This document shows, piece after piece, positions 44,209-63,643 of a DNA stretch of 64,000 nt. Under the pieces are notes generated by a model that saw only the letters and a program-made list of their open reading frames with translations, was not told the DNA's origin and made no database searches. Every line of letters begins with the position of its first letter. Position 1 is the stretch's first letter. Location of the stretch: NCBI RefSeq assembly GCF_003063315.1, contig NZ_NERV01000002.1:434001-498000 (forward strand), read 5' to 3'. Origin of the DNA: Limnohabitans sp. T6-5 (GTDB lineage: Bacteria > Pseudomonadota > Gammaproteobacteria > Burkholderiales > Burkholderiaceae_C). Both the position numbers and the translations under genes were made by a program.

Positions 44209-45117
44209 ATGTCCTCCATGTCCAACCCCACGGGCCACAGCGCCGCAACCACCCCTGAAACCAGCCACACAGTGCTGAACTTTGCCAACGCCTTGTGGCG
44301 CGTGCGCAGGCCCAAGCCCTTTGTGTTGGTGATCGAAGGCGAAGTGGGCCAAGAAAGCACAGCGCCCAGCGACTACCTGCACGACCAACTGCTCTTGCCC
44401 GAATGGCGCGAGGCCTTTTACCAACTGGTCGATGCCACCGGCCTGGTGGTCTGCCTGAATGTGCACACAGCACACCCCACCTACCGCGACGTGCGCGGGC
44501 GCTCCAGCAAAGGGCGACTGAGCCAAGGCGAGTACTACCACCACGACGGCTGCACAGGCCCCGTCAAGCCACGCTTTGTCGAGATTCGCTGCCCCATCCA
44601 GCCGCAAACACGCGGCGTGGCCACCGCCGTAGCACCGCACCACGATGTGGTCAAAGCCATGGTGCAAGTGCTGCCCGCCGAGCTGGCCGCCACGTCGGCG
44701 CTGGCTGGGCAAGACATGCGCCTAGAAACCATCAACATGATGGACTATGCCGCGCTGGACCACTTGCAAGGCCTCATCACGCGCACCGTGCGCAAAAAGC
44801 TCAACGCCGAAGGCGCACGCAGCTACTTTCGCCAAGTGGATGCCGCCGCCAATGCCTACTTTGAACCTTGGGCCTTGGGTGAAAGCCGCTTCATCGCCAA
44901 CGCCAACAGCGGCATCACCATGCAACACCGCCGCGCCTACCAAGCCCCCCACACCGGCGGCGTGGCCAATGGCCATTTGGTCAAGCGCTGGACGAATGAA
45001 GAACTGCTGCTACCCGGCCAAGTGGTAGACCAAGCCTTGATTGCTGCGCTGTGCAGCGAAGAAGGTGATGAAGTGGATGGGGAGCGAGCTGAGGGGTGTT
45101 ACCTCGGGGCGCATTGA
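44209..45117 (+). CDS. Unknown protein, possible Fe(II)/2-oxoglutarate oxygenase
   Basis: A protein of about 302 residues with no signal peptide. GEYYHHDGCTGPVKPRFVEIRCP contains an HHD stretch that could supply the H-x-D-type metal ligands (only a part is a motif: YYHHDGCTGP), and NSGITMQHRRAYQAPHTGG a distal His with a following Arg, the order seen in Fe(II)/2OG oxygenases. I cannot assign the family with certainty. The start at 44209 is chosen because a TAAAAT box lies 45 bp upstream and earlier ATG codons read through low-quality sequence. Its last twelve codons coincide with the left copy of the repeat that flanks the defence island. Confidence 0.6.
   Translation: MSSMSNPTGHSAATTPETSHTVLNFANALWRVRRPKPFVLVIEGEVGQESTAPSDYLHDQLLLPEWREAFYQLVDATGLVVCLNVHTAHPTYRDVRGRSSKGRLSQGEYYHHDGCTGPVKPRFVEIRCPIQPQTRGVATAVAPHHDVVKAMVQVLPAELAATSALAGQDMRLETINMMDYAALDHLQGLITRTVRKKLNAEGARSYFRQVDAAANAYFEPWALGESRFIANANSGITMQHRRAYQAPHTGGVANGHLVKRWTNEELLLPGQVVDQALIAALCSEEGDEVDGERAEGCYLGAH
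45081..45117. repeat. Left copy of the imperfect direct repeat flanking the defence island
   Basis: The 37-40 bp from 45081 match 60301-60340 at 31 of 40 positions, with the best block GGTGTTACCTCGGGGCGCAT versus GTTGTTAGCTCGAGGCGCAT followed by TGA in both. Here it is the coding 3' end of the preceding gene (ending ...EGCYLGAH). The DUF2130 gene ends 37 bp further on. Confidence 0.65.
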
Positions 45118-45153
45118 GCACTGAGCGCAAATTCCAGCGCCCGCTACGCCGTC

Positions 45154-46566
45154 TCAGTCGGGGCTTTTCCCTGGCAACTCTGCAAACTTGGCCGCCATCG
45201 TGGGGTTGCCCCGTGTGAGCTTCTTGATCGTCAAGTCGTCGGCCTTGTCGTTGGCCAGGCGCAAATTGTTGGCTGACTTGTGCAGCGCTTCCTTGGTTTT
45301 TTCCAAGTCCTTGATCGCTTCGTCAATGCGCTTGACGGCTTCTTCAAAGCCCTCAGAGGCCAGACGCCAATTGCGCCCAAACGCCGTCTTGAATTCGTCC
45401 AGCTGGGTTTCAAACTTGGTGATGTCCACGTTCTGCGAGCGCACCAAGGCCAGCTCGGACTTGTACTTCATCGCGTTCAAAGCCGCATTGCGCAGCAGCG
45501 TGATCAAGGGCACAAAGAACTGCGGCCGCACCACGTACATCTTGGGGTAGCGGTGCGACACATCCACGATGCCGCTGTTGTACAACTCGCTCTCCGGCTC
45601 CAGCAGGGAGACCAGCACCGCGTACTCGCAGGCCTTTTCCGTGCGGTCCTTGTCCAGCTCTTTCAGAAAATCTTCGTTCCGCTTCTTGGTGGCCGTTTCG
45701 TCGCTTTCGTTCTTCATCTCAAACATGATGGAGACGATCTCGGCACCCGACTCGTCTGCGTCGCGAAAAATGTAGTCGCCCTTGCTGCCGTTGCGGGCGT
45801 CGTTGTCTTTCTCAAAATGCGCCCGCTGAAAAGCGGCTGCACGGATGCGGTTGAACTCGATTTCGCAGTGCTGCTCCAGGGTTTCACCCACCATCTTGGT
45901 CGACAGCCGCGCCTTCATGTCGCGCAGGCGCGCAATCTCGCCATCACGGTCGCGCAGCTGCAAGGCGTATTGCTCCTTGATGGCTTTCTCTTCCAGCTGG
46001 TTTTTCACAGCAATCAGGTTGAGGTCATTTTTCAAGCCATCGCGCTCTCGGGCGACCACACCCACGGCCTCGTTCACAGCCAATTGGCGCGCTGTCTCGG
46101 TGGCCTCCAGCTTGGCTTGCAGCGCCTGAATTTCGGCGTCCTTTTTGGCGGCTTCGGCCTGCAGCGCATGGGCCAGCTTGGCCTCGGCCAACTGGGCTGC
46201 CGCTTGGCTGCTGTTGCGCGCTCTCTCCTGTTCGGTCTTCAGCTCGTTGGCCAACTGATCGCGCTCTTTGCTCACCGTGCCCAAGGCCTCCGAAACCGCC
46301 AGCTTGCGCGCCACCTCGCCCGCATCCAGCTGGGCTTTCAGCGCCTGAATCTCCGTGTCTTTGGCCGCCGCTGTTTTTTGCAGCGCATTGGTGACATTGG
46401 CCTCGGCCAAGGCAATTGCGTCGCGCTTTTCCCGCTCGGCCAACTCGAGCCGCTCGTGCAACTGCTTGTCAAAATCGCCATCACGCACCTGCTTGAGGAT
46501 GTCGGCGTACCCCGCCTCGTCGATCTTGAAGGCTTTGTGGCAGTGGGGGCAGATGATTTCGTGCAT
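45154..46566 (-). CDS. DUF2130 protein with coiled coil and PD-(D/E)XK-like signature
   Basis: A 470-residue protein. The N-terminus has a half zinc-knuckle, [10 protein letters not shown]; residues of about 30-235 are a long charged coiled coil with repeated [16 protein letters not shown]-type units; the conserved C-terminal DUF2130 domain follows. Within it, [16 protein letters not shown] and IMFEMKNE place Glu, Asp and Glu-x-Lys in the order of PD-(D/E)XK nucleases, so a nuclease role is inferred. DUF2130 genes are common in defence islands. It ends the minus-strand run 45 bp after gajB, but its GC-rich codon use resembles the hsd genes rather than gajA-gajB. Confidence 0.8.
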
Positions 46567-46611
46567 GGGAAACTTTATGTTGGTCCGTACAGGTTGTAAT
46601 AAATCAGAGTC

Positions 46612-48450
46612 TCACGCTGCGATGCGAATTTGATCAGGCATGAGTAGCTTACTGTTGATGAGTTCAGTCCGCGCGTCTTCAGGGTTAGCGGTAAACATGA
46701 GTACTCGCAAATCCTCTTTCGCGCGCGAGAACGATACATAGGCGAGCTTCTGAGTTATGGAGAGCTGCCTGTCAGTAGGCTTGCCGGCCGTCAGCGGCGT
46801 CAGGACTTTGTTGAAGCTGTAATTATTCCAAGCGGCCTCGACATCGTCATAGACAACCATGACCTTTTCATATTCCTCGCCTTTCACTCCATGTTGGGTG
46901 CTGTAGGCAGTGTTGTTGGCAATGTATTCAGCATAGTGAGCCACTGGCCCGGGAGGCATTTGGATTAGCGAGTCCGCGAGCCAATCTCCTTTGTCGAGAC
47001 TGTGAAGATCTTCATCAAACGCCTCGTCTCGAGGCGCGCGGTCGAGATGCTCACTTAGCCTCTCAGAGGGTTGGACGATCTGATTGTCAATACAGAAACG
47101 AAGAACGGCACCTATCGTCTCGGTACGCCACAAAGCCTGCAATTGACTCACCAATGCGCTTGAGGTTTGGACCATAACCTTCAGCGACTTTTCTGCATTG
47201 AATCCGTCTGCTGCGAACGCCGGGCTTTCGCGCCGGAGTAAATTAATAACCATTCGGGCGTCGCCTTGCTCATGGGCCGCGATCAACGGGCAAATAGTAG
47301 AAAGAAAAGGCTTTAGAAGAAAATGCTCGCCGGACTCAAAAGCATCCTGTGCGCGAGACGAGGCATATTCACCAGTGAAGAGTCGGTTCAGATCGGCAAA
47401 GCCCAGCCGCCGCGCGATCATTTGACGCACTAGGAAGAGTCTCATGACGTCATCTCGTCCGGTCCACCCCCAGCCCTCGATCGCAGCGTCCATTCGCGCT
47501 AGCGCGCGCTCAATCTGGTCCTCTGAATAGCGCTTGCGAGGCTCCGTTGGCTCCTCCGCTTGAACTAGCAGGAATTCGACACTTCCTTCGCAAGTCTTAT
47601 TTGCGCCAGCGGCATATTGCTCGACGTCATCACGATAGGCGTTTAAAAGCCGGATGACACTCTGCGAACAGCGGAAATTTTCGGTCTTCGTGATGACCTC
47701 ACCACCTTCAGGTGGTGCAAAGTCCCCTGCGCTTCGGTCGTAAATTTGCTGCCATGGATCCCCAAAATAACCAATCACTGGAAGTCCGCTGCCAGCACCT
47801 ACTAAATTGAGACCGGCGACGATGCCTTCAAATGTGTCCTGGGCTTCATCGACAAAGATGTATGGAAACCGAAGGCCGGTGATCCGTCTGAATGTGGCAT
47901 TTTTTGCAAACAGGTAGGTCGCAATCTCAATGACGTCATCATGACCAATCTGGCCTTCACCGTAATCGCTGAAGTTTGTGTCGGCATATTCGAAAAACTT
48001 AACTTTTACGATAGCTGCAAGATCTTCTGTAAGTCGCTCGATCTTTGCGCGCGCCTTCAATGCTTTTTTGCTCTTCCCTCCGTTGTCATCTTCCTTGGCT
48101 TTCTCTATAAGGGCCGGGATGCGACTCTCTCGCAGCGCCACCCGAATATCTTCGTGAAAGCGGCTGATCTGTCCCCACAGAAAGCTGTGAAGCGTTGAAA
48201 CTAAGTAAATGTTGTCGAACCCCAACCGAGTCTTGATCACCTCTACCGCTCGCTTAGTAAAAGTGATGCAGGCGATACGTTGACCTTGCCTTTTGAGGAC
48301 ACTCCCCTCGCGATCACGGATTCGGCTCAGAGCCTCGACCAGCGAGCTTGTCTTGCCGGAACCCGCGCCAGCAATCATTGCGAAGCTGCGATGCTCTTGT
48401 AGGCATTTTTGAACCTGCGCATCCGCTGCGCTTTCTACACGGGTCGCCAT
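46612..48450 (-). CDS. gajB: UvrD/Rep-like helicase, Gabija GajB-like
   Basis: A 612-residue superfamily 1A helicase. Walker A is IAGAGSGKTSSLVEAL, Walker B is YIFVDEAQDTFEG, motif III/IV segments include GYFGDPWQQIYDRSAG, and motif VI is KLAYVSFSRAKEDLRV. One base separates it from the upstream OLD-family nuclease, the arrangement that defines class 2 OLD/Gabija. In Gabija, GajB senses or processes DNA ends and works with GajA to stop phage. It is longer than GajB of the best-studied system (about 490 residues). Base composition is clearly AT-richer than the surrounding hsd and DUF2130 genes. Confidence 0.82.
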   Translation of the reverse strand: MATRVESAADAQVQKCLQEHRSFAMIAGAGSGKTSSLVEALSRIRDREGSVLKRQGQRIACITFTKRAVEVIKTRLGFDNIYLVSTLHSFLWGQISRFHEDIRVALRESRIPALIEKAKEDDNGGKSKKALKARAKIERLTEDLAAIVKVKFFEYADTNFSDYGEGQIGHDDVIEIATYLFAKNATFRRITGLRFPYIFVDEAQDTFEGIVAGLNLVGAGSGLPVIGYFGDPWQQIYDRSAGDFAPPEGGEVITKTENFRCSQSVIRLLNAYRDDVEQYAAGANKTCEGSVEFLLVQAEEPTEPRKRYSEDQIERALARMDAAIEGWGWTGRDDVMRLFLVRQMIARRLGFADLNRLFTGEYASSRAQDAFESGEHFLLKPFLSTICPLIAAHEQGDARMVINLLRRESPAFAADGFNAEKSLKVMVQTSSALVSQLQALWRTETIGAVLRFCIDNQIVQPSERLSEHLDRAPRDEAFDEDLHSLDKGDWLADSLIQMPPGPVAHYAEYIANNTAYSTQHGVKGEEYEKVMVVYDDVEAAWNNYSFNKVLTPLTAGKPTDRQLSITQKLAYVSFSRAKEDLRVLMFTANPEDARTELINSKLLMPDQIRIAA

Positions 48451-48451
48451 A

Positions 48452-50557
48452 CTAAGCAGCCTCCGTCGTCGCAGCGCCTAGTGAAACAGTTGTGGTGCTC
48501 GGCGGACACAGCCGCTCTTCAAGCCAATGCAACCCTTCAGCAATGTAGTTGGGGACAATCAATTCCTCGGCGCACGCCAAGATATCCATGGCGAAATCGG
48601 TCTTCTTGAAATCGTTGGATTGAATTCGTTTGTAGACGCATTCATAAGCGTCTTGGAGTGGTTTCAGTATTTCAACCCCGATGGACAGCGTGCCGGCTCG
48701 AAACAACCCAAAGTTCTCGTAAACGATCGCTTCTTCCAAGGTGCGGGGACGGAGCTTCGCACTATCGGCACCATCGACAACCTGAATATCGGTCTGGAAC
48801 GCAATGCAGCGATCTTTTGCGGAGTGGCGCTTGTCCGCCGAGGTTAGTCTAATCAAACCGTCGACAGTGGATTGCGCACACAGCTTTTTAAGGGAGGCAT
48901 TGGAGGTTCGCGCGCCAACCACGTCCGCCCGACAGGCAGTCTGATATCCAGTCGGCACTACTGAGTCCAGATCCGTGATGACGAGATAAGGAATGTGAAG
49001 GAAGCTGAGCAAGCCTTCAAAACGGTGAGCATAAGCTCCACCCACCTCCAAAACCGTGAGGTACGTGGACTGCAATCGCTTCGCAGTGCGCTCAATCATG
49101 TAAGGCATGAGGAGCTTTTCGACCGCCCCTTCAACAAGTACGGCCGCATCGGCGAAGAAGAGGTCGCAGTGGGTGAGACGAAGATAGCGTTTGAGAAAAG
49201 CTAGCGATTCTGAAGGGGATATCAGCTTGCCTTCAATTTCCTCAGCCTCTGGCTGGAACGCTCGAAGGCTACGAACCACAGACGCATTGCGGATGCCTGG
49301 CGCTTCCACCTCGCCCTCACTGTTGCATCGTTGAAAGTATCGAACTTTCTCGAAAGCCACCGCTTCCATAATATGAGAGGAGTGTGTTGTGACGACGAGC
49401 TGCGGCACCAAACCAGATTCACCTGATTCCAGAGCGGACTGGTTGATTACCTCCCAAATGTTTGAAATAAAGGTCTGCTGCACTTGAGCGTGAAGATGGA
49501 CCTCTGGCTCTTCAATAAAGATCATCAAGCATAGTGGTCTGTCCTCTTTGGTCATCACCCACTGAGAATGGAAATGCCGAGCCTGAATAGCCATGTAGAT
49601 CAGGTTTTTGAAGCCAAGACCGTTGTAAAGCTCGGGCAGTTCATGCTCTCGGCTGGGATCAACATAGAGCAGCTCAGTGCTTCCACGCAATGCAGTTTCA
49701 GGGCTGAGCGAGGAAATGATGCGTAATTCACGATCGTTAATCGACGGTACGCCAAGATGCTTGATCAGCCTTATCAATGGGTCGAATTGCTTGGCGTAAT
49801 GGTCTGTTAGCAGCTTGTTGTTCGCATCGATCACACTGTGAGCATCCGCTGCATGTCCAACTTGCTCAAGGTTCTTCCGGTAAAAGGAGGCAAAGGCCGA
49901 CGAAAGCCGATTGCTACGGCTACTGTCGTCATCGTTGATGTTGCGCTGTGCATCAACGAACTCAACCCGAATGAGATGCTTCAGGAGTCGCTTGCCTTCG
50001 TCAGACTCAAGCTCACTCGCCACAATCTCGGGAAGGGCCCCTTCTATTGACTTTTCATTAAGCGAAAAATAGCGAACCGCAAAATGGCGACCTAGATTAC
50101 CGTCGAGCGAAAGATATTGCGCCAACGCCCTTGCACGCGTCCCATCTTCCTGGGTGGGGTAGGCGGATTCATATTGCTCGCGTAACTTCTTTGCGTCCTG
50201 TATCTCGTACGACAGTCGAATGCCGACGCGAGTGAAGTCGGAAAGCTTGGGCAACAAAGTGAAAACCCTGCCGAATGCAATGCTCTCGGGATCAATGGTG
50301 AACCACAAATCAAGGCTAATTTTCGGCAGGTGCTCAGCATCCCCAGTGGCAATAAAGGTATCAAAATCTGCCATTCTGGCTACCGAGAAATCGTGAATCT
50401 TGAACTCGCGACCGCCAAGAAAGCATCGGAATATTGCAGTGGCAGACGTCTTTCCGCTGTTGTTAGGTCCAACGAATATTGACTCGCGTTCTTCGATGTC
50501 TATCTGAACGTTCTCTAGTCGGCGGAAATTTCTAATGGCAACTTTACTGACCTTCAT
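48452..50557 (-). CDS. gajA: OLD-family ATPase-TOPRIM endonuclease, Gabija GajA-like
   Basis: A 701-residue protein. The ABC-type ATPase has Walker A FVGPNNSGKTSAT near residue 35 and the signature/Walker B region LMIFIEEPEVHLHAQVQQ, with the H-loop in VVTTHSSHIMEAV. The C-terminal TOPRIM domain has ADAAVLVEGAVEKLLMPYM (the Glu pair) and LVITDLDSVVP (the DxD). This is the OLD layout; the helicase gene one base downstream makes it class 2, that is GajA of Gabija. The ATG at 50557 is chosen because AGGA lies five bases upstream; ATGs at 50569 and 50572 are alternatives. It is longer than the standard GajA (about 580). Confidence 0.85.
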   Translation of the reverse strand: MKVSKVAIRNFRRLENVQIDIEERESIFVGPNNSGKTSATAIFRCFLGGREFKIHDFSVARMADFDTFIATGDAEHLPKISLDLWFTIDPESIAFGRVFTLLPKLSDFTRVGIRLSYEIQDAKKLREQYESAYPTQEDGTRARALAQYLSLDGNLGRHFAVRYFSLNEKSIEGALPEIVASELESDEGKRLLKHLIRVEFVDAQRNINDDDSSRSNRLSSAFASFYRKNLEQVGHAADAHSVIDANNKLLTDHYAKQFDPLIRLIKHLGVPSINDRELRIISSLSPETALRGSTELLYVDPSREHELPELYNGLGFKNLIYMAIQARHFHSQWVMTKEDRPLCLMIFIEEPEVHLHAQVQQTFISNIWEVINQSALESGESGLVPQLVVTTHSSHIMEAVAFEKVRYFQRCNSEGEVEAPGIRNASVVRSLRAFQPEAEEIEGKLISPSESLAFLKRYLRLTHCDLFFADAAVLVEGAVEKLLMPYMIERTAKRLQSTYLTVLEVGGAYAHRFEGLLSFLHIPYLVITDLDSVVPTGYQTACRADVVGARTSNASLKKLCAQSTVDGLIRLTSADKRHSAKDRCIAFQTDIQVVDGADSAKLRPRTLEEAIVYENFGLFRAGTLSIGVEILKPLQDAYECVYKRIQSNDFKKTDFAMDILACAEELIVPNYIAEGLHWLEERLCPPSTTTVSLGAATTEAA

Positions 50558-50645
50558 ACGTATCCTCATCATTGTTGTGGTGTGCTAAACATCTATGGGC
50601 TAGTCATTGCCCTAAGTTCCTGCCAAAGCCGTTTATGCCGCACAG

Positions 50646-50666
50646 GTGGTCGCAATTTGCGACCAC
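50646..50666. promoter_or_regulatory. Perfect 21-bp palindrome upstream of gajA
   Basis: Arms GTGGTCGCAA and TTGCGACCAC flank a single T, about 90 bp before the gajA start in the 309-bp gap after hsdR. It has the size and symmetry of an operator for a dimeric regulator. The rest of the gap (50667-50866) is AT-rich and shows no gene that I can support. Confidence 0.6.
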
Positions 50667-50866
50667 ATCGGCGTTTTCAGCCTGCGTGAGTTGAAACAGA
50701 AAGTCGCGGGAGATCAGAGAAGCCAAAATATATGCGAAAAAAGTTCACACAAGCATATTCTGAATTTGGCCCCAAAAAACCCAGCTCACCACAAATTTGA
50801 ATTTTTGTGACGTGTTGGACTACCCTTTGCCCTGGGCCACAAAGGCCAGTTAAGCCTTCACTGTCT

Positions 50867-54139
<3,273 letters not shown>

Positions 54140-54153
54140 ACTTATCCTTGTCT

Positions 54154-55296
54154 TTAGCCTTGCATTTTGGTTTTGTACCAACCGGCCATGCTTTCGTCCT
54201 CAAGTGCATAGTCACCGTAGGCGGCACGCCAGACCAACCCCTTTTCACGCAATGTGTCCAGCGCAGCCTGAACCGATGGAACCGATACTTTTTCTTGCTG
54301 CACCAAGTTGGCATAAGCGCGCATCGACGCCTCGGAGAAAGGAACGTAATTTTTGCCCTGATCGATGATCGTCTCCAGCACCGCCCGCTGAATGTCGGGC
54401 AAACCGGCGAACTCGCTCTCCATCGCTCCCCACATTCTTTCCTTGATTTCTTCCGCACCATTCTTCAGCGCTTCGCCAAGGTGGTCCGCGCCGGCATCCA
54501 AGGCAATCTCGCCGACGATGCTGCGCAGCATCTCAGGGCGATGTCCAACCAACTTGAAGGCCTCAAACATATCCTCGTGACGGAACTGGTTGTCATTGGC
54601 CAGCAAGGGGTTCACGAAGTCCGTATAAGCGTCGGTAAAGTCCTTGGTCAGCAAGGGGAACCGCGTCACTTGCGAGCCAAAAAAAGGCTGGGTGCGTTTC
54701 AACACCAAGTGGGCCAGCTTGTCACGGTTGGAACCCGTTAAAACAATAAACAGGCCTTGCTGCCCACTGCCTTGGTTCAAGTGATCGCGTGCTGCCTTGA
54801 GGGCAAACATGGCATCCACGCCAGCCTGGGTAGAGAGCGCATGCTGTGCTTCGTCAATGACGATGGCGACTGGCGCCTTTCCGGCTTCAACCAACGCCTC
54901 CAGAGCATCCGCCAGCGTCAGTCCCGTTGGCAGTTCTAGCGAATCGAGGTTGAGGCTCAGGGCACCGAACACGTTCACTTTTTCCAGCCCGGTCGACTTG
55001 GCCATCTTGGCGATGACACCCGCAAAAGTACCAATTTTTGCTTTGACGGCGCTGGTAATGAGTAAAGCCGGGTCTTTGGATTTGTCCGCCCACAAGTCCA
55101 CATAGATCGTGGTCCAGCCTCGCTTTTGCATGGCGGGCAACATGTCTTCACGCAAGAAAGTGCTTTTTCCCGTGCGTCTTGGCGCGGCCAGGAACAAGCC
55201 GGAGCGACTGTCCGCCAAGCCGTGGCCCCCAAGGCTTTCGCAATAACTCTCCGCCAGAGCTGGGCGGTGAAAGGTAAACGGCTTTATCGCACTCAT
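54154..55296 (-). CDS. AAA-type ATPase inside the type I restriction operon
   Basis: A 380-residue P-loop ATPase. Walker A is FLAAPRRTGKSTFLRED, Walker B is VAIVIDEAQHALS, sensor 1 is FIVLTGSNRDKLA, and the C-terminal 80 residues form a likely winged helix (SVPSVQAALDTLREKGLVWRA, part only). The layout resembles Orc1/Cdc6-like or archaeal-type ATPases. It is not a standard part of type I systems. Its position between hsdS and hsdR, the 15-bp gap to hsdR and the GGAG site before its ATG suggest coexpression with hsdR. A repeat array in front of it may allow separate control. Confidence 0.8.
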   Translation of the reverse strand: MSAIKPFTFHRPALAESYCESLGGHGLADSRSGLFLAAPRRTGKSTFLREDMLPAMQKRGWTTIYVDLWADKSKDPALLITSAVKAKIGTFAGVIAKMAKSTGLEKVNVFGALSLNLDSLELPTGLTLADALEALVEAGKAPVAIVIDEAQHALSTQAGVDAMFALKAARDHLNQGSGQQGLFIVLTGSNRDKLAHLVLKRTQPFFGSQVTRFPLLTKDFTDAYTDFVNPLLANDNQFRHEDMFEAFKLVGHRPEMLRSIVGEIALDAGADHLGEALKNGAEEIKERMWGAMESEFAGLPDIQRAVLETIIDQGKNYVPFSEASMRAYANLVQQEKVSVPSVQAALDTLREKGLVWRAAYGDYALEDESMAGWYKTKMQG

Positions 55297-55305
55297 CTTG
55301 GACTC

Positions 55306-55371
55306 CGACTTATGGCAACTTATGGGAAAAAGTATAACTTATGGTTTTCGACATAAGTCGGAATAAGTTGG
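55306..55371. promoter_or_regulatory. Array of five 10-bp repeats upstream of the accessory ATPase
   Basis: Three direct copies of (C/T)(G/A)ACTTATGG at 55306, 55316 and 55335 face two inverted copies at 55352 (CATAAGTCGG) and 55362 (AATAAGTTGG). Adjacent copies are exactly 10 bp apart, one helical turn. The outer arms CCGACTTATG and CATAAGTCGG are perfect inverted repeats. On the minus strand a TATACT hexamer (55330-55335) lies in the middle, so the array probably overlaps a promoter for the ATPase and hsdR. Confidence 0.65.
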
Positions 55372-55372
55372 C

Positions 55373-56722
55373 TCAAGATTCGACGCCGACACCCTCTTGA
55401 ACAGCGACGGCTTGCCAATCGCGCACGTCGATCTTGCCGGTGACGGCGGCGGAGATCAGGGCAGTGCGGCGTTCTTGGAGTAGCGAAATCGTCTTAACTG
55501 CCTTATCAATAAGTTCATCAAAACGGCGTGACTTTTCGCTCAAGAAGCGACCAATCTCTTTCTGCTCAATCAATGGAGGTTTCGTCAATGAAAAGTTTCG
55601 GATTGTCGATACATTGACATGAGGAGACGTAGCGCCAACAGTATCAAGTTGCCCCTGCTTATAAACATTGTCGCTATTGAGTAACCACATAAGAAAGTCT
55701 GGAGAAAAATCTGGGCCAACACGAAATTGCATCATGCGTTGCCCGAGACAGTATCGAGAGTCTTCTGGAACTAGACCCGCATGCCCCCATCGCTCCCCTT
55801 CTCGTCCATAAACAATATCGCTACACATCAAATCTGCACGACGCACTCTCCGAATGTATTCATCATCCTGAACGCGATACATTTTTGAAGAGTCCAAATG
55901 GCCTTCATTAAGGTCAGCAGTTCGTATGACTAGATACTCTCCGTCGTCTGAATACACAGGAGTTTCGTGTGGGCAATCAACAATCATTGAAGTGGCATAT
56001 TTGAGGTAAGTTGCTCCCCAATGCGCGGGCACTTCACCTAGCCACTCCACGCCGGAGTCTTTCATCGGGGTGTTGGGGTTGAGGCCTTTGGTGACGGCGT
56101 GGCTGATGACGGCTTGGCGCTTTTCCTTGAGCAACTCAATCAGCCGCTGCTGCTTCTCGATCAAGGCATCAATCTTCGCCGTTTCTTGGTCGAGGAAAGC
56201 AGCAATGTTTGCCTGCTCATTTTGAGGCGGCAAAGCTAAATCTAAGACAGAAAATTCACTGTAGCGAAACTCTGTTGATCGCTCCCTAATTCCTTTCGCA
56301 AGGGATGAAATGAAATCTGTCACAGCCAGTTGACGAACAAGATAACCAAAGTAAGCGACATGGATTTGTTCTGGATCTGTTGGCACGCAGACAGAACAGA
56401 CTGGCGAACATTTCCCATCAGAGTCACTAACGCCAATGGCGCCAGCAAAGCCATCCATGGCATGTACTAACAAGTCGCCTTTCCTAACGCCTTGATAGCC
56501 AATTTCCTTGATGGATTCGGTAAAGCCTTCCGTCCTGCGGTTTGATCGCAAAGTTACTTGTCCGTCGCGAAAAGCGGTCACAACCCCATCCTCAAGACGA
56601 ACTTCGCGTTGAACTCGATTGAAGACGTACTTTGATTTTCGTAAGACCCAATGGCTCGGCATTTCTCCAAGCCATTGCAAGCCCGAATCCCGGTACTCCG
56701 GATAAGCCTTGTACCGACTCAT
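55373..56722 (-). CDS. hsdS: Type I restriction-modification specificity subunit
   Basis: A 449-residue DNA-recognition subunit with two target-recognition domains and two conserved helical spacers. The first spacer runs from LALPPQNEQANIAAFLDQE to KRQAVISHAVTKGLNP, the second from PLIEQKEIGRFLSEK to RRTALISAAVTGKIDVRD. Each half starts with a similar DSG(L/V)xWLGE(M/V)P box. The recognition domains themselves are more AT-rich than the rest, as is usual for shuffled specificity genes. The start overlaps the DUF1016 gene by four bases. Confidence 0.94.
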   Translation of the reverse strand: MSRYKAYPEYRDSGLQWLGEMPSHWVLRKSKYVFNRVQREVRLEDGVVTAFRDGQVTLRSNRRTEGFTESIKEIGYQGVRKGDLLVHAMDGFAGAIGVSDSDGKCSPVCSVCVPTDPEQIHVAYFGYLVRQLAVTDFISSLAKGIRERSTEFRYSEFSVLDLALPPQNEQANIAAFLDQETAKIDALIEKQQRLIELLKEKRQAVISHAVTKGLNPNTPMKDSGVEWLGEVPAHWGATYLKYATSMIVDCPHETPVYSDDGEYLVIRTADLNEGHLDSSKMYRVQDDEYIRRVRRADLMCSDIVYGREGERWGHAGLVPEDSRYCLGQRMMQFRVGPDFSPDFLMWLLNSDNVYKQGQLDTVGATSPHVNVSTIRNFSLTKPPLIEQKEIGRFLSEKSRRFDELIDKAVKTISLLQERRTALISAAVTGKIDVRDWQAVAVQEGVGVES

Positions 56723-57731
56723 TCCGCCTCCCTATCGCCCAAGTTCGCCAAATAAAACTCATGCAATTTGGCCTGCAGCAGTTTCTTGTCGGGCAACTGG
56801 GTCTGGTATAGGGCGACGAGGGCTGGGGACAGGCTGCGGCTCAGGGCGTACTCCACCACTTCGTCGTCTTTGCTGGCGCACAGCAGCAGGCCGATGGCGG
56901 GGTTTTCGTGGGTTTTTTTGTGGTCGCGGTCCAGCGCTTCCAGATAGAAGTTGAGCTGGCCCAGGTGCTCGGGCGAGAAGCGGCTGGTTTTGAGTTCGAT
57001 GGCCACCAGGCAGTTGAGGCCTCGGTGGAAGAACAACAAGTCGAGGGCGAAATCTTGCTTGCCCACTTGCAACGGGTATTCGCTGCCAACAAAACAGAAG
57101 TCGCGCCCGAGTTCAAGCAGAAACTGCCTGAGCTGCGCGAGCAGGCCGCGTTGAAGGTCGCTCTCCAGGTGGGCGGCTGGCAGATCGAGAAATTCGACCA
57201 AGTAGCTGTCTTTGAACACGCTGGCCGCGTTGGGGTGAGTTTGTGTCACCAGTGGTGACACTTTTGCCGGGCTGAGGACAACGCGCTCAAAAAGGGCGGC
57301 GTCAAACTGCCGCTCCAGCTCCCTGCTTGACCATTTTTCCTGCGCCGCCATCTTGAGGTAGAACTCGCGTTCTTCTGGGCGCTTGCTGCGGCTGAGGATG
57401 ATGAGGTTGTGCGTCCAGGGTAATTCTCTCAGCAGCGCTGAGAGAATTGGACTGTCGCTGTAGGCCTCAAAAAACTGCCGCATTCGCCAGATGTTTTTGG
57501 CAGAAAAACCGCGCAAACCGGGCTGGGTCGTAGCAATGTGCTGCGCCAGCTGCTCGACAATGCTCTCGCCCCATTCGGCGGCCTTGATCTTGGCACTGAG
57601 ATAGGCGCCGACCTGCCAGTACAGCTCGATCAGCGCGATGTTCACTGCCTGGTAGGCACGCTGGCGGGCACTTTCGATGAGTTGGGTGATTTCGGCGAAG
57701 TCGGGGGTCTTCGTCGTTGGGGTCAAGTCGC

Positions 57732-57735
<4 letters not shown>
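56719..57735 (-). CDS. DUF1016 (YhcG-family) PD-(D/E)XK nuclease protein
   Basis: A 338-residue protein with the N-terminal DUF1016 helical domain ([40 protein letters not shown]) and a C-terminal PD-(D/E)XK nuclease domain in which [21 protein letters not shown] gives the Asp and Glu-x-Lys residues (part quoted as DLLFFHR and VAIELKTS). YhcG-type genes often sit in or next to type I loci; their exact task is unclear. Four-base overlaps with hsdM and hsdS show it is translated as part of the operon. Confidence 0.88.
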
Positions 57736-60080
<2,345 letters not shown>

Positions 60081-60126
60081 TTTTTACGAACGAGGGGTCG
60101 GAGTTTCAACCTTATCTGGCTAAGTA

Positions 60127-60298
60127 TTACACGGGGTTGAGGGGGAATTGGCCACCCATGCGCAGGCCTGCAAAGAACAAAGCCGCCATGCCGATGCTTT
60201 CGCCCTGCGTGGGGTGTGGGTGGATGGTTTTGCCGATGGCCAAAGCCATCTCGCCAATCATGTCGCCCGCATGTGTGCCCACCATGCCGCCGCCCAAA
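60127..60298 (-). pseudogene. Decayed 3' fragment of a dihydrolipoamide dehydrogenase gene
   Basis: Reading the minus strand from 60298 gives [20 protein letters not shown], then [19 protein letters not shown] and a different tail ending at TAA (60127-60129). The complete lpdA at 61817-63643 has the same segment, but with nine more codons between ALAI and GKTIH. There is no start codon and no FAD or NAD domain. The fragment abuts the right copy of the flanking repeat. It is a relic of an E3 gene, either a partial duplication of the neighbour or the end of a lost paralogue. Confidence 0.85.
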
Positions 60299-60300
60299 AA

Positions 60301-60337
60301 AGAGTGAGTTGAGGGTTGTTAGCTCGAGGCGCATTGA
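60301..60337. repeat. Right copy of the imperfect direct repeat flanking the defence island
   Basis: Matches 45081-45117 at most positions. In the frame that is coding at the left copy, this copy reads E-stop-V-E-G-C-stop-L-E-A-H-stop, that is a non-functional version of the same gene end. It directly follows the lpdA fragment and lies 70 bp before the ATPase gene at 60407. Confidence 0.65.
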
Positions 60338-60361
60338 CGGGCATGGATGGAATTAAATTTA

Positions 60362-60397
60362 CTCAATAAAATGAGATAAATTACTCAATGAACTGAG
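60362..60397 (+). promoter_or_regulatory. Twin palindromic sites before the ATPase gene
   Basis: Two copies of CTCA-N6-TGAG at 60362-60375 and 60384-60397, each preceded by TTA, are spaced by 22 bp, about two helical turns. TTGACG (60334-60339) and TTTACT (60358-60363) with 18-bp spacing form a possible promoter, which the first site would cover. No regulator gene is adjacent. Confidence 0.55.
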
Positions 60398-60406
60398 CAA
60401 AGAAAA

Positions 60407-61621
60407 ATGACCATCGAACGCGAATCACTGGCCCCATTGGTGGCAAGGCTCAAAGAACCCCGCCGATTTCTCCAAGTGGTGGCTGGTCCACGCCAAGTGG
60501 GCAAAACAACACTGGTACGCCAAGCGCTGGAGCGCTTGCAGATTGATGCCAAATCCGAAACCAACACCCCATTAGCACAACACAGCGCCAGTGCCGATGG
60601 CCCCGGTTTGCAAGGCAAAGTGTGGTTAAGCACCCAATGGCAAGTGGCCCGTGCACTGGCCGCCCAAGCAGGCAGTTGTGTTTTGGTTCTGGACGAAATT
60701 CAAAAAGTGTCCAACTGGACGGAAGAAGTCAAACGCCTGTGGGACGAAGACACCGCCGCTGGCCGCGATGTGCGCGTGGTCATCCTCGGCTCTGCCCCGT
60801 TGTTGATTGCTCGGGGCTTGAGCGAAAGCATGGCCGGGCGGTTTGAAATCAGCCGCTTGGGCCACTGGCGCTTTGCCGAAATGCGCGACGCCTTTGGCTT
60901 TAGCTTGGAGCAGTTCATCTTTTATGGTGGCTACCCCGGCGCAGCCCCCTTGGTGCACGATGAAACCCGCTGGGCCGCTTATGTGAGCGATGCCCTGATC
61001 GAAACCACCATCAGCAAAGATGTGCTGTTGATGGCCCCCGTGCAAAAGCCCGCCCTGCTGCGCCGCGTGTTTGACCTGGCCTGCGTATACAGCGGCCAAA
61101 TTCTGAGCTACCAAAAGATGCTGGGCCAGCTCGATGATGCGGGCAACACCACCACCCTCGCCCACTACCTCGACCTGCTAGAAGGCGCGGGCATGGCCTG
61201 CGGCCTGCCCAAATACATGGGCCAAGTGGTGCGTCAACGTGCATCAAGCCCCAAGCTGCAAGTGTTCAACAACGCACTGATGGGCTGCCACTGGGTAGCA
61301 CAAGGCGTGGGACTGCAAGCGGCGCAAGCGCGCCCCGACGTGTGGGGCCGTCTTGCCGAGAGCGCCGTAGGCACTGAGCTGCTGGCCCGGCACCTGACCC
61401 ACAGCAGCCGGCACCCCGTCATTCACTACTGGAACAATGGCCAAAAAGAAGTGGACTACGTGCTGCGCGATGGCCCCACGCTACAAGCACTGGAGGTCAA
61501 AAGCGGCCACAACATGGGCAATGTCTCCGGCTTGACAGCATTTGTGCAACTGTTTGAACAAGCGCAACCGCTGGTCATTGGCACAGGAGGCATGCCGTTG
61601 GATTTGTGGCTGCAGAGCTAA
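60407..61621 (+). CDS. AAA_14/DUF4143-family ATPase
   Basis: A 404-residue protein of the widespread ATPase group with an N-terminal AAA domain and a C-terminal DUF4143 domain. Walker A is VAGPRQVGKTTLVRQ, Walker B is CVLVLDEIQKVSNW, and GSAPLLIARGLSESMAGRF is the usual sensor segment. The DUF4143 part has the nuclease-like pattern KEVDYVLRDG...ALEVKSG. Function is unknown; such genes spread horizontally. It is oriented against the island genes, and carries its own operator-like sites and terminator. Confidence 0.87.
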   Translation: MTIERESLAPLVARLKEPRRFLQVVAGPRQVGKTTLVRQALERLQIDAKSETNTPLAQHSASADGPGLQGKVWLSTQWQVARALAAQAGSCVLVLDEIQKVSNWTEEVKRLWDEDTAAGRDVRVVILGSAPLLIARGLSESMAGRFEISRLGHWRFAEMRDAFGFSLEQFIFYGGYPGAAPLVHDETRWAAYVSDALIETTISKDVLLMAPVQKPALLRRVFDLACVYSGQILSYQKMLGQLDDAGNTTTLAHYLDLLEGAGMACGLPKYMGQVVRQRASSPKLQVFNNALMGCHWVAQGVGLQAAQARPDVWGRLAESAVGTELLARHLTHSSRHPVIHYWNNGQKEVDYVLRDGPTLQALEVKSGHNMGNVSGLTAFVQLFEQAQPLVIGTGGMPLDLWLQS

Positions 61622-61654
61622 GTGCATCAACTTAGCTGCTCTGAGTTTTGTGCG

Positions 61655-61683
61655 ATACGACTCAAAATTTGAGACGTATTTTT
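61655..61683 (+). terminator. Rho-independent terminator after the DUF4143 ATPase gene
   Basis: Arms ATACGACTCAAA and TTTGAGACGTAT pair with one mismatch around a single A and are followed by TTTT, 34 bp after the stop. An AT-rich stem, so of moderate strength. Confidence 0.6.
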
Positions 61684-61702
61684 AAAAATGCACATCATGG
61701 GT

Positions 61703-61745
61703 GCGGCGAATACGCCGCTTAATCACCGCATGAAATGCGGTGATT
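61703..61745. repeat. Two adjacent perfect hairpins
   Basis: GCGGCG - AATA - CGCCGC (61703-61718) is followed after two bases by AATCACCGCA - TGAAA - TGCGGTGATT (61721-61745). Neither is followed by a T run on the plus strand. They lie between the terminators of the convergent ATPase and lpdA genes. Confidence 0.6.
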
Positions 61746-61760
61746 ACCAGACGCTCACAG

Positions 61761-61792
61761 AAAAAAAAGCCCGGACAGCTTCCCGTCCGGGC
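61761..61792 (-). terminator. Rho-independent terminator after the pyruvate dehydrogenase lpdA
   Basis: On the minus strand GCCCGGAC - GGGAAGCT - GTCCGGGC is followed by eight T residues, 25 bp after the lpdA stop. The plus strand has TTCTTCTTTT after the stem, so it may also stop transcripts from the convergent gene. Confidence 0.88.
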
Positions 61793-61816
61793 TTCTTCTT
61801 TTGAGGCGCGAAGTGT

Positions 61817-63643
61817 TTACTTCTTGCCAGGCGGCAAATCCGTGCAGCTACCGTGCGCCACCTCTGCCGCCATGCCGATGCTTTCGCCCAGCGTGGGGTG
61901 TGGGTGGATCGTTTTGCCGATGTCCACGGCGTCTGCGCCCATCTCAATCGCCAGCGCGATCTCGCCGATCATGTCGCCCGCGTGCGTGCCGACCATGCCG
62001 CCGCCGAGGATCTTGCCGTGGCCGTGGGCCTCGGGGGAATCGTCAAACAGCAGTTTGGTCACGCCTTCGTCGCGGCCGTTGGCAATGGCGCGGCCCGAGG
62101 CGGCCCAAGGGAACAAGCCCTTTTTCACCTTGATGCCTTGCGCTTTGGCTTGGTCTTCAGTCAAGCCCACCCAGGCCACTTCGGGATCGGTGTAGGCCAC
62201 GCTGGGGATGACGCGGGCGTTGAACGCCGCCGCCGCCAACTCTTTGTTGCCTTGCAGTTCACCCGCAATGACTTCGGCCGCCACGTGGGCTTCGTGCACC
62301 GCCTTGTGCGCCAACATGGGCTGGCCCACGATGTCGCCGATGGCGAAGATGTGCGGCACGTTGGTGCGCATCTGAAGGTCGACGTTGATGAAGCCGCGGT
62401 CGGTCACAGACACGCCGGCTTTTTCAGCGGCGAGTTTTTTGCCATTGGGCGTGCGGCCCACAGCTTGCAACACCAGGTCGTACACCTGCGGCGCGGGGGC
62501 TGTGCCGCCCTCTTCTGCGGGTGCAAACGTGACTTCGATGCCTTCGGGCAAGGCGCGTGCGGACACGGTCTTGGTCTTGAGCATGATGTTGTCAAAGCGC
62601 TTGGCGTTCATCTTTTGCCAGACTTTGACCAAGTCGCGGTCAGCGCCTTGCATGAGGCCGTCCATCATTTCCACCACGTCCAGGCGTGCGCCCAACGTGC
62701 TGTAAACCGTGCCCATTTCCAGGCCGATGATGCCGCCACCCAAAATGAGCATGCGCTTAGGAACACTCTGTAGTTCCAACGCGCCAGTGCTGTCGACCAC
62801 GCGTGGGTCATTCGGCATGAAAGGCAAACGCACAGCTTGCGAACCGGCAGCGATGATGGCCTTCTTGAAGGCGATCACTTTTTTGCTGCCGTTTTGTTCT
62901 TGTGCAGTGCCAGTGGTCTCCGACACTTCGAGGTGGTTTGCACCTACGAACTGGCCCAAGCCGCGCACGGTGGTGACCTTGCGCATCTTGGCCATGGCAG
63001 CCAAGCCGCCGGTGAGCTTGCCAATGACTTTTTCTTTGTGGCCGCGCAGCTTGTCGATGTTGACGGCGGGTGTACCGAAGTCCACACCCAAGTCGGCCAT
63101 GTGGCTGACTTCGTCCATGACGGCTGCGACGTGCAACAGCGCTTTAGACGGGATGCAACCCACGTTCAAACACACGCCGCCCAAGGTGGCGTAGCGCTCG
63201 ACGATGACGACGTTCAAACCGAGGTCAGCCGCGCGGAATGCTGCCGAGTAACCACCGGGGCCACCGCCCAAGACGAGCACATCGCACTCGATGTCGGCAG
63301 AGCCGCCGAAGGATGAGGCTGTGGGTGCAGGGGCTGCTGGAGCGGCAGGTGCTGCTGCAGCGGGAGCCGCTGCGGGTGCAGGGGCAGCTGGAGCGCTAGC
63401 CGCACCTTCTACATCCAACACCAACACAACCGAACCTTCTTTGACCTTGTCGCCCAGCTTGATCTTCAACTCTTTCACCACGCCCGCATGTGAGGATGGA
63501 ATTTCCATCGACGCTTTGTCGGACTCCACAGTGATGAGCGATTGCTCTGCACGGACGGTGTCGCCGGGTTTGACCAGCAACTCGATCACGGCGACTTCGT
63601 CGAAGTCGCCGATGTCTGGAACTTTGATATCAATCATTGCCAT
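61817..63643 (-). CDS. lpdA: Lipoyl-domain-bearing dihydrolipoamide dehydrogenase (E3 of pyruvate dehydrogenase)
   Basis: A 608-residue E3 with an N-terminal lipoyl domain, the layout found in pyruvate dehydrogenase operons of Burkholderiales and Neisseria. The lipoylated Lys is in [14 protein letters not shown] at about residue 43; an Ala/Pro linker (about 80-115) leads to the flavoenzyme with FAD motif [15 protein letters not shown], redox disulfide [19 protein letters not shown] motif [14 protein letters not shown] and the C-terminal catalytic [10 protein letters not shown]. It lies 15 bp after aceF. It is the intact relative of the gene fragment at 60127-60298. Confidence 0.96.

What the first reader, a model, noticed from the sequence alone, without database searches (positions are those of the whole stretch)
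45081..60340. Imperfect direct repeat exactly bracketing the defence island
45081-45117 and 60301-60337 share about 31 of 40 aligned positions in the same orientation, including near-identical blocks ending in GGCGCATTGA. The left copy is the coding 3' end of the gene at 44209-45117; the right copy is the same end with two in-frame stops. Everything between is hsdM to DUF2130. This pattern suggests that the island entered at a gene end and duplicated or brought along a copy of it, like an attachment site. The divergence implies an old event. A dispersed repeat with two members here is the alternative.
Basis: partly seen in the sequence, partly recalled or inferred. Interest (0 to 1): 0.65.

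Follow-up and report, generated by a model that had tools for sequence, protein, structure and literature searches.

The report
Gene-end scars in a stacked hotspot
The repeat around this freshwater bacterium's phage-defence island is real, but it is most likely not an insertion site: it is a leftover scrap of a neighbouring gene, one of many such scraps that mark where blocks of foreign DNA were added between the same two genes.

Summary
The repeat is real: 45082-45117 and 60302-60337 match at 31 of 36 positions without gaps and are the only near-exact copies in the 4.17 Mb genome. It does not behave like an attachment site. The true flanks are gene A (44209-45117) and a convergent lpd gene (61817-63643, reverse strand). 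Compact relatives join them directly: 45117 continues into 61701, not 60338. Beside the right copy lies a missed second scar, a 3' piece of an lpd (60182-60294); the genome's own lpd ranks only 36th of 57 as its match.

The gene A-lpd gap is a hotspot in the genus (79 bp to 55 kb). Of 27 gaps over 300 bp, 15 hold truncated pieces of lpd (26) or gene A (8), with widely varying break points, all matches in native orientation. No tyrosine or serine recombinase match lies in the 14 gaps checked. Best explanation: gap contents from relatives were stacked by recombination homologous at one end and illegitimate at the other. The window reads gene A - island - lpd' | geneA' - DUF4143 ATPase - lpd. The process resembles a published model for Vibrio cholerae T6SS immunity arrays.

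The parts
44209..45117 (+). Left flanking gene A (302 aa, no Pfam or NCBIfam match; nicknamed OX in notes)
   Evidence: translation; no family; matches in 55 of 90 genus genomes, partial ones included
45082..45117 (+). Left copy of the repeat = the intact 3' end of gene A
   Evidence: 31/36 match to 60302-60337
45118..61700 (.). Whole insertion relative to compact relatives (16,583 bp)
   Evidence: joined flanks align to G035 209/247 and G017 210/247 columns
45154..46566 (-). DUF2130 protein gene; follows a gene A fragment in several relatives
   Evidence: PF09903 1.5e-87
46612..48450 (-). Gabija GajB-like helicase
   Evidence: PADLOC GajB 1.6e-179
48452..50572 (-). Gabija GajA-like ATPase
   Evidence: PADLOC GajA 2.5e-210
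50867..54181 (-). Type I restriction HsdR-like
   Evidence: PADLOC REase_I 2.2e-35; HSDR_N and SWI2_SNF2
54154..55296 (-). AAA ATPase ORF between HsdR and HsdS
   Evidence: PF13401 1e-6; no PADLOC match
55373..56722 (-). HsdS specificity subunit
   Evidence: PADLOC Specificity_I 3.2e-132
56719..57735 (-). DUF1016/YhcG nuclease
   Evidence: PF06250 3.4e-55
57732..60080 (-). HsdM
   Evidence: PADLOC MTase_I 1e-271
60182..60294 (-). lpd': decayed 3' fragment of an lpd, probably foreign (about codons 537-593, 27 bp missing inside, last about 40 bp of the gene missing)
   Evidence: tblastn; own lpd ranks 36 of 57, best G079 at 97.4% excluding gaps
60302..60337 (+). Right copy of the repeat = gene A' stub of 36 bp with two in-frame stops, carried with the ATPase unit
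   Evidence: related stubs in G026, G029, G092, G086; its derived bases are in none of 45 native gene A ends
60407..61621 (+). DUF4143 AAA ATPase (PADLOC candidate PDC-S01)
   Evidence: PF13635 7.1e-22; PDC-S01 2.4e-158
61701..61816 (.). Ancestral gene A-lpd intergenic segment with lpd terminator
   Evidence: its counterpart directly follows the gene A stop codon in G035 and G017
61817..63643 (-). Right flanking gene, lpd (dihydrolipoyl dehydrogenase with N-terminal lipoyl domain), intact
   Evidence: TIGR01350 2.1e-136; lipoyl domain; matches in 76 of 90 genus genomes at E <= 1e-150

Best explanation
The repeat is a recombination scar in an accretion hotspot. In the ancestor gene A and lpd were convergent neighbours about 120 bp apart. 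DNA arrives from relatives as gene A end - cargo - lpd end. It joins the chromosome by homologous recombination at one flank and by illegitimate joining, with little or no sequence match, at the other. Each such event leaves a 3'-terminal fragment of lpd, of gene A, or of both. In the window a unit 'gene A - DUF2130...HsdM - lpd prime' and a unit 'gene A prime - DUF4143 ATPase - lpd' now lie head to tail, joined at about 60300. The right copy is the stub of gene A that belongs to the ATPase unit. SHOWN: the layout, the empty site, the variable breaks, the uniform orientation, lpd fragments mostly nearer to other genomes' lpd than to the cell's own, and no match of two recombinase families in 14 gaps. 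INFERRED: the homologous end, linear donor DNA taken up by transformation or transduction, and which unit was resident and which incoming (not resolved).
For: Compact relatives G035 and G017 join gene A's stop codon to the counterpart of the segment at 61701. Gaps in 32 one-contig genomes run from 79 to 55,431 bp. In 27 gaps over 300 bp (290,609 bp) all 43 of 43 matches to the window's lpd or gene A are in native orientation, reversed queries give 0, and 8 of 11 control stretches give 0 (the other three are told under evidence against). 26 lpd and 8 gene A fragments in 15 of 27 gaps, reaching 37 to 1085 bp back from the gene end. Of 29 lpd pieces of 100 bp or more with the own lpd known, the own lpd is the best match for 1. 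The same HsdM flank runs to an intact lpd in G067, into truncated lpd through one shared joint in G000 and G079 (different far ends), and through another stretch into truncated lpd in G062 and G026 (breaks near codons 264 and 581). The same ATPase unit has different lpd'|geneA' joints in G000, G026, G086 and G029/G092. At 5 of 7 joints the parental alignments meet within -3 to +4 bases. No Phage_integrase or Resolvase match in the 14 gaps checked. ComEC over cut-off in 78 of 90 genomes, own genome included.
Against: 12 of 27 occupied gaps show no fragment. Only 13 of 26 lpd fragments still reach within 6 bp of the gene end, so later deletions blur the picture. Three of 11 control stretches also match the gaps: one a whole gene in G108, two with 4 and 16 diverged matches that I took for related genes and did not examine further. 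G029 and G092 joints leave 30 and 13 bases unassigned. G000 and G092 stubs begin at the same gene A position although their lpd fragments differ, which independent random joints do not predict. The lpd identity profile did not show a crossover or which unit was incoming. No genome was found with intact gene A directly in front of the ATPase unit; 3 of 8 close ATPase copies in the genus (G105, G101, G002) show no gene A stub before them. For the 1501-bp fragment of G064 the own lpd is the best match. ComEC also passes its cut-off in 5 of 14 control genomes, so it does not prove competence. Some gaps hold transposases.
Confidence: 0.7

Rival explanations
1. Attachment sites: the island is an integrative element that targets the gene A 3' end; 45082-45117 and 60302-60337 are attL and attR.
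For: Short direct repeat at a gene's 3' end that keeps the gene intact.
Against: No Phage_integrase or Resolvase match in the 14 gaps checked; gene A fragments reach 15 to about 217 bp; lpd fragments of the opposite flank occur as well; compact relatives fit 45117 to 61701, not 60338.
Confidence: 0.04
2. Circle integration: a relative's gap content circularised at an lpd'|geneA' joint and entered by one homologous crossover in gene A or lpd.
For: Gives the same head-to-tail layout; lpd' lies next to geneA' in G000, G026, G085, G092, G029 and G086.
Against: Gene A fragments in G066 (two), G067, G070, G075, G007 and G104 show no lpd coding piece in the 160 bases to their left, though G070 has an lpd-like terminator there; most lpd fragments show no gene A piece in the 70 bases to their right (by eye; very short stubs could be missed).
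Confidence: 0.15
3. Tandem duplication of the cell's own gene A end - intergenic - lpd end, followed by separate insertions into each copy.
For: Explains why the order is lpd' then geneA'.
Against: The window's lpd fragment is not nearest to the cell's own lpd (36th of 57); 28 of 29 pieces of 100 bp or more match another genome's lpd best; HsdM flank and lpd' are shared as one block with G079.
Confidence: 0.07
4. Transposon or IS activity moved the cargo and the gene ends went along as passengers.
For: Transposase families occur among 150 representative gap proteins.
Against: No transposase family among the window island's annotated genes; fragments come from the two flanking genes in native orientation. 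Terminal inverted repeats and target-site duplications were not searched for.
Confidence: 0.04

Closest known systems
Displacement arrays of Vibrio cholerae type VI effector-immunity modules (PMC5361080, passages read)
   Same: Foreign modules added one after another at one locus, no specific integration sites, leftovers of earlier genes shifted outward, leftovers resembling other strains' genes; the authors propose a process akin to homology-facilitated illegitimate recombination.
   Different: There the conserved upstream side is the anchor and the leftovers are immunity genes. Here two unrelated flanking genes both leave truncated ends, and the cargo is defence and general genes.
Hotspots without mobile elements, with recombination at flanking core genes (PMC5635113, passages read)
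   Same: Very variable content between two conserved genes, no integrase found, recombination at the flanks proposed.
   Different: That work infers recombination statistically; here truncated copies of the flanking genes mark individual joints.
Core defence hotspots of Pseudomonas aeruginosa, cDHS1 (PMC10250203, passages read)
   Same: Defence genes between fixed core genes without an obvious mobile element.
   Different: No scars are mentioned in the passages seen, and the authors leave open how such hotspots are built; here some gaps are empty and the cargo is not only defence.
Integrative elements using gene 3' ends as attachment sites (recalled)
   Same: Direct repeat at a gene 3' end, gene kept intact.
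   Different: Variable fragment lengths, no recombinase match, fragments of the opposite flank, no matching empty site.

Membership tests
Integrase-borne genomic island | integrase gene in the element | tested here: not met
   no PF00589 or PF00239 match in the 14 gaps checked, positions compared by eye; the G026 gap is split over two contigs and the G085 gap ends at a contig end
Integrase-borne genomic island | direct repeats of fixed extent at both ends | tested here: not met
   gene A fragments reach 15 to about 217 bp from the gene end in different loci
Integrase-borne genomic island | empty site equals one copy of the repeat | tested here: not met
   compact relatives fit 45117 to 61701 better than 60338, 7 of 7, two of them weakly
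Homology-facilitated illegitimate recombination product | joint with little or no homology | tested here: met
   parental alignments meet within -3 to +4 bases at 5 of 7 joints; 30 and 13 unassigned bases at the other two, which look like one shared joint
Homology-facilitated illegitimate recombination product | other end joined by homologous recombination | tested here: inconclusive
   lpd identity profile between G000, G026 and G029 shows no clear crossover
Homology-facilitated illegitimate recombination product | foreign DNA acquired together with anchor sequence | tested here: met
   lpd fragments mostly nearest to other genomes' lpd; HsdM flank shared in front of intact and truncated lpd
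Homology-facilitated illegitimate recombination product | uptake route for linear DNA (competence) | not testable with these tools
   ComEC over cut-off in 78 of 90 genomes, and in 5 of 14 control genomes: suggestive only
Core-gene-flanked hotspot | same two conserved genes with highly variable content between | tested here: met
   32 one-contig gaps of 79 to 55,431 bp; 245 ORFs of at least 110 aa in 27 gaps fall into 184 clusters; gene A itself is not universal, 55 of 90
Tandem duplication of own sequence | fragment derives from the cell's own gene | tested here: not met
   own lpd is best match for 1 of 29 pieces; rank 36 of 57 for the window

The most novel reading that the evidence does not exclude
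The gap between gene A and lpd is an integrase-free array that grows by stacking whole gap contents from different species head to tail, and the gene-end scraps are its growth rings. Units that carry a self-preserving gene set beside lpd (a HigB-like toxin unit, or the DUF4143 ATPase) cannot be overrun, so foreign units pile up against them. Reading the scraps would give the order and sources of gene acquisition, defence genes included, at one locus.
Probability: 0.25. Interest if true: 0.7.

Novelty: new variant of a known kind. Interest (0 to 1): 0.5.

Why it matters
Many hotspots of transferred genes lie between ordinary core genes with no mobile element in sight (PMC5635113, passages), and a study of defence hotspots says that how they are built and whether they transfer remains to be learned (PMC10250203, passages). 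Here truncated ends of both flanking genes mark individual joints, so acquisition can be traced joint by joint across a genus, and the steps can be tested in laboratory transformation.

Tried and rejected
Attachment-site reading: rejected on recombinase search, fragment lengths and empty site. Dispersed repeat: rejected, only two near-exact copies in the genome. Tandem duplication of own sequence: not favoured, by the ranking of lpd sources. tRNA target: none found in the window. One shared lpd'|geneA' joint later eroded in all ATPase-unit genomes: not favoured, because the G000 lpd fragment is nearer to native G079 lpd (113 identities, 3 mismatches) than to the G092 fragment (73, 9). An intact gene A directly before the ATPase unit (the predicted pre-island state): not found in the fetched genus regions nor in the 14 of 15 inspected loci that hold sequence before the gene (80 loci were kept there, 4 of the 15 are genus genomes already seen). 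Deciding the incoming unit from identity profiles: no answer (whose script also stopped with an error after two of nine genomes). Literature: the listings show no paper on this locus and one search found none; only three papers were opened, by passages.

Rows dropped: from the ranking, ten genomes without gene A whose lpd-like matches lie about 7-14 kb from lpd and look like a second lpd homologue (G060, G006, G031, G089, G012, G001, G112, G020, G034, G087), native genes that the filter had not labelled (G083, G109, long gene A matches in G066, G064, G061, G103), and matches under 60 or over 1600 bp. From the count of 29, G105 and G103 contig 61; the latter held a piece identical to the own lpd at a contig end, so keeping it would make 2 of 30. 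Some of the 29 are pieces of one fragment. Regions with only one flank on the contig are outside the 27-gap counts but some are in the 29.
Full report
1. The repeat. Positions 45082-45117 and 60302-60337 match at 31 of 36 bases without gaps, same orientation. A 27-base pattern built from both copies, allowing 3 mismatches, is found only at these two places in the window, against 0.00 expected. In the genome that holds the window (4,166,903 bases, 7 contigs) a 20-base pattern has two matches without mismatch, these two, and three more with 3 mismatches; the backward control has none. The left copy is the end of the coding sequence of gene A (44209-45117, 302 aa), which matches no Pfam or NCBIfam model at the thresholds used.

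2. To the right, 61817-63643 on the reverse strand is an intact lpd gene, dihydrolipoyl dehydrogenase with an N-terminal lipoyl domain. A decayed piece of an lpd 3' end lies at 60182-60294, immediately left of the right copy. So the order is: gene A; DUF2130, Gabija-like GajB and GajA, HsdR, AAA, HsdS, DUF1016, HsdM; lpd fragment; gene A stub; DUF4143 ATPase; lpd.

3. Empty sites. In relatives G035 and G017 the gene A stop codon is followed at once by the counterpart of the segment found in the window at 61701 and then by the lpd terminator and lpd. For all 7 compact relatives tested the join at 61701 scores higher, though the fit is weak for G030 and G109. The insertion is therefore 45118-61700, and the repeat does not mark its right end.

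4. A hotspot across the genus. Among 90 genus genomes lpd is matched in 76 at E <= 1e-150 and gene A in 55, partial matches included. In the 32 genomes that passed my filter both lie convergent on one contig, with gaps of 79 to 55,431 bp; 6 gaps are 118 bp or less. With G085 added, 27 gaps exceed 300 bp, 290,609 bp in all. They hold 245 non-overlapping ORFs of at least 110 aa in 184 clusters. Of 150 representatives scanned, some match defence families (type I specificity, PDC-S01, MADS), others transport receptors, regulators, sulfatases and transposases. One named member is Limnohabitans planktonicus II-D5: contig NZ_LFYT02000037.1 has the length of G026 contig 37, 35,212 bases, and shows the same sequence before the ATPase.

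5. Scars of both flanking genes. In these 27 gaps the window's lpd and gene A give 35 and 8 matches, all 43 in the orientation of the native genes. The same sequences reversed give 0. Of 11 control stretches from elsewhere in the window 8 give 0; one gives a whole gene in G108, and two give 4 and 16 diverged matches that I took for related genes without further check. With queries from all genomes there are 26 lpd fragments in 12 gaps and 8 gene A fragments in 7 gaps; 15 of 27 gaps have at least one and 12 have none. The fragments reach 79-1085 bp (lpd) and 37-217 bp (gene A) back from the gene end. 13 of 26 lpd and 7 of 8 gene A fragments still reach within 6 bp of it. G007 has 7 lpd fragments in a 46-kb gap and G079 has 5 in 55 kb.

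6. The fragments look foreign. For the window's fragment the cell's own lpd ranks 36th of 57 (92.0% against 97.4% for G079, gaps not counted). Of 29 lpd pieces of at least 100 bp in 13 genomes where the own lpd is known, the own gene is the best match once (the 1501-bp piece of G064) and within the first three 4 times. Taking the best of many sequences is a biased comparison, but a recent own duplicate should rank first.

7. Units travel with their ends. The stretch beside the start of HsdM is shared by G000, G062, G026, G079, G067 and G070. In G067 it runs through what looks like a small gene pair to an intact lpd, and in G070 a 68-codon HsdM remnant does the same. In G000 and G079 it runs through the same joint into truncated lpd with different far ends; in G062 and G026 it runs through another shared stretch to truncated lpd, broken near codons 264 and 581. 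DUF2130 follows intact gene A in G000 and a gene A fragment in G026, G067 (where it is truncated), G070 and G104. The ATPase unit of the window recurs in G026, G029, G092 and G086 with different lpd'|geneA' joints to its left; stub lengths are about 36, 23, 35, 36 and 15 bp (window, G026, G029, G092, G086; read by eye). The stubs of G000 and G092 share bases not found at those positions in any of 45 native gene A ends; G026, G029 and G086 show them too by eye as far as they reach. Of 8 close copies of the ATPase in the genus (92% or more) these are 5; the other 3 (G105, G101, G002) show no stub before them, so the ATPase also lives elsewhere. A HigB-like unit (name from its translated start, recalled) beside lpd in G079, G061, G074, G097 and G092 likewise has differing lpd breaks to its left; G074 and G097 share one.

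8. Joints and recombinases. At 5 of 7 joints the alignments to the two parents meet within -3 to +4 bases; G029 and G092, which look like one shared joint, leave 30 and 13 bases unassigned. No Phage_integrase match lies in the gap in the 14 genomes checked, nor any Resolvase match, comparing coordinates by eye; the G026 gap is split over two contigs and the G085 gap ends at a contig end. Transposases do occur among the gap proteins.

9. Mechanism. Foreign units arrive with their own flanking gene ends and are joined by homologous recombination at one flank and illegitimate joining at the other. Anchored at gene A this leaves an lpd fragment; anchored at lpd it leaves a gene A fragment; where the joint falls in the resident gene end, both touch, as at 60300. 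The homologous end is inferred, not shown. Circle integration by one crossover would give the same touching joints and is the main rival. Which unit was resident is not resolved. Natural transformation is plausible: a ComEC match passes the family cut-off in 78 of 90 genomes, the own genome among them, but also in 5 of 14 control genomes, so this is weak evidence.

10. Known work. A process akin to homology-facilitated illegitimate recombination was proposed for V. cholerae T6SS immunity arrays (PMC5361080, passages), citing experiments in Acinetobacter, Pseudomonas stutzeri and Streptococcus pneumoniae that I saw only as cited there. Hotspots without mobile elements and with recombining flanks are described in PMC5635113 (passages). 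PMC10250203 (passages) leaves open how core defence hotspots are built. The process is therefore of a known kind; two-sided gene-end scars in a mixed hotspot are a variant that I did not see in the listings (one search found no paper).

Noticed in passing
46039-46191 and 46258-46410: The DUF2130 gene holds an internal duplication of about 153 bp, 70% identical.
   Followed up: no
54154-55296: An AAA ATPase ORF sits between HsdS and HsdR of the type I system and matches no PADLOC model.
   Followed up: no
L146 (genome G108): The gene A-lpd gap of G108 contains an almost whole homologue, 82% identical, of the window gene at 40558-42231, which in the window lies outside the gap.
   Followed up: no
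L090, L093, L111, L122, L123, L157: A small unit starting near AAAGTACTTTTTAAGGTACACT and encoding a HigB-like start (recalled name) recurs next to lpd or lpd fragments, with varying lpd breaks directly before it.
   Followed up: partly
60338-60406: The region before the DUF4143 ATPase carries repeated TTACTCAAT-like motifs seen before most homologues inspected, also outside the hotspot; looks like an operator.
   Followed up: no
genus genomes G006, G031, G089, G012, G001, G112, G020, G034, G087, G060: These genomes lack gene A and show what looks like a second lpd homologue about 7-14 kb from lpd.
   Followed up: no
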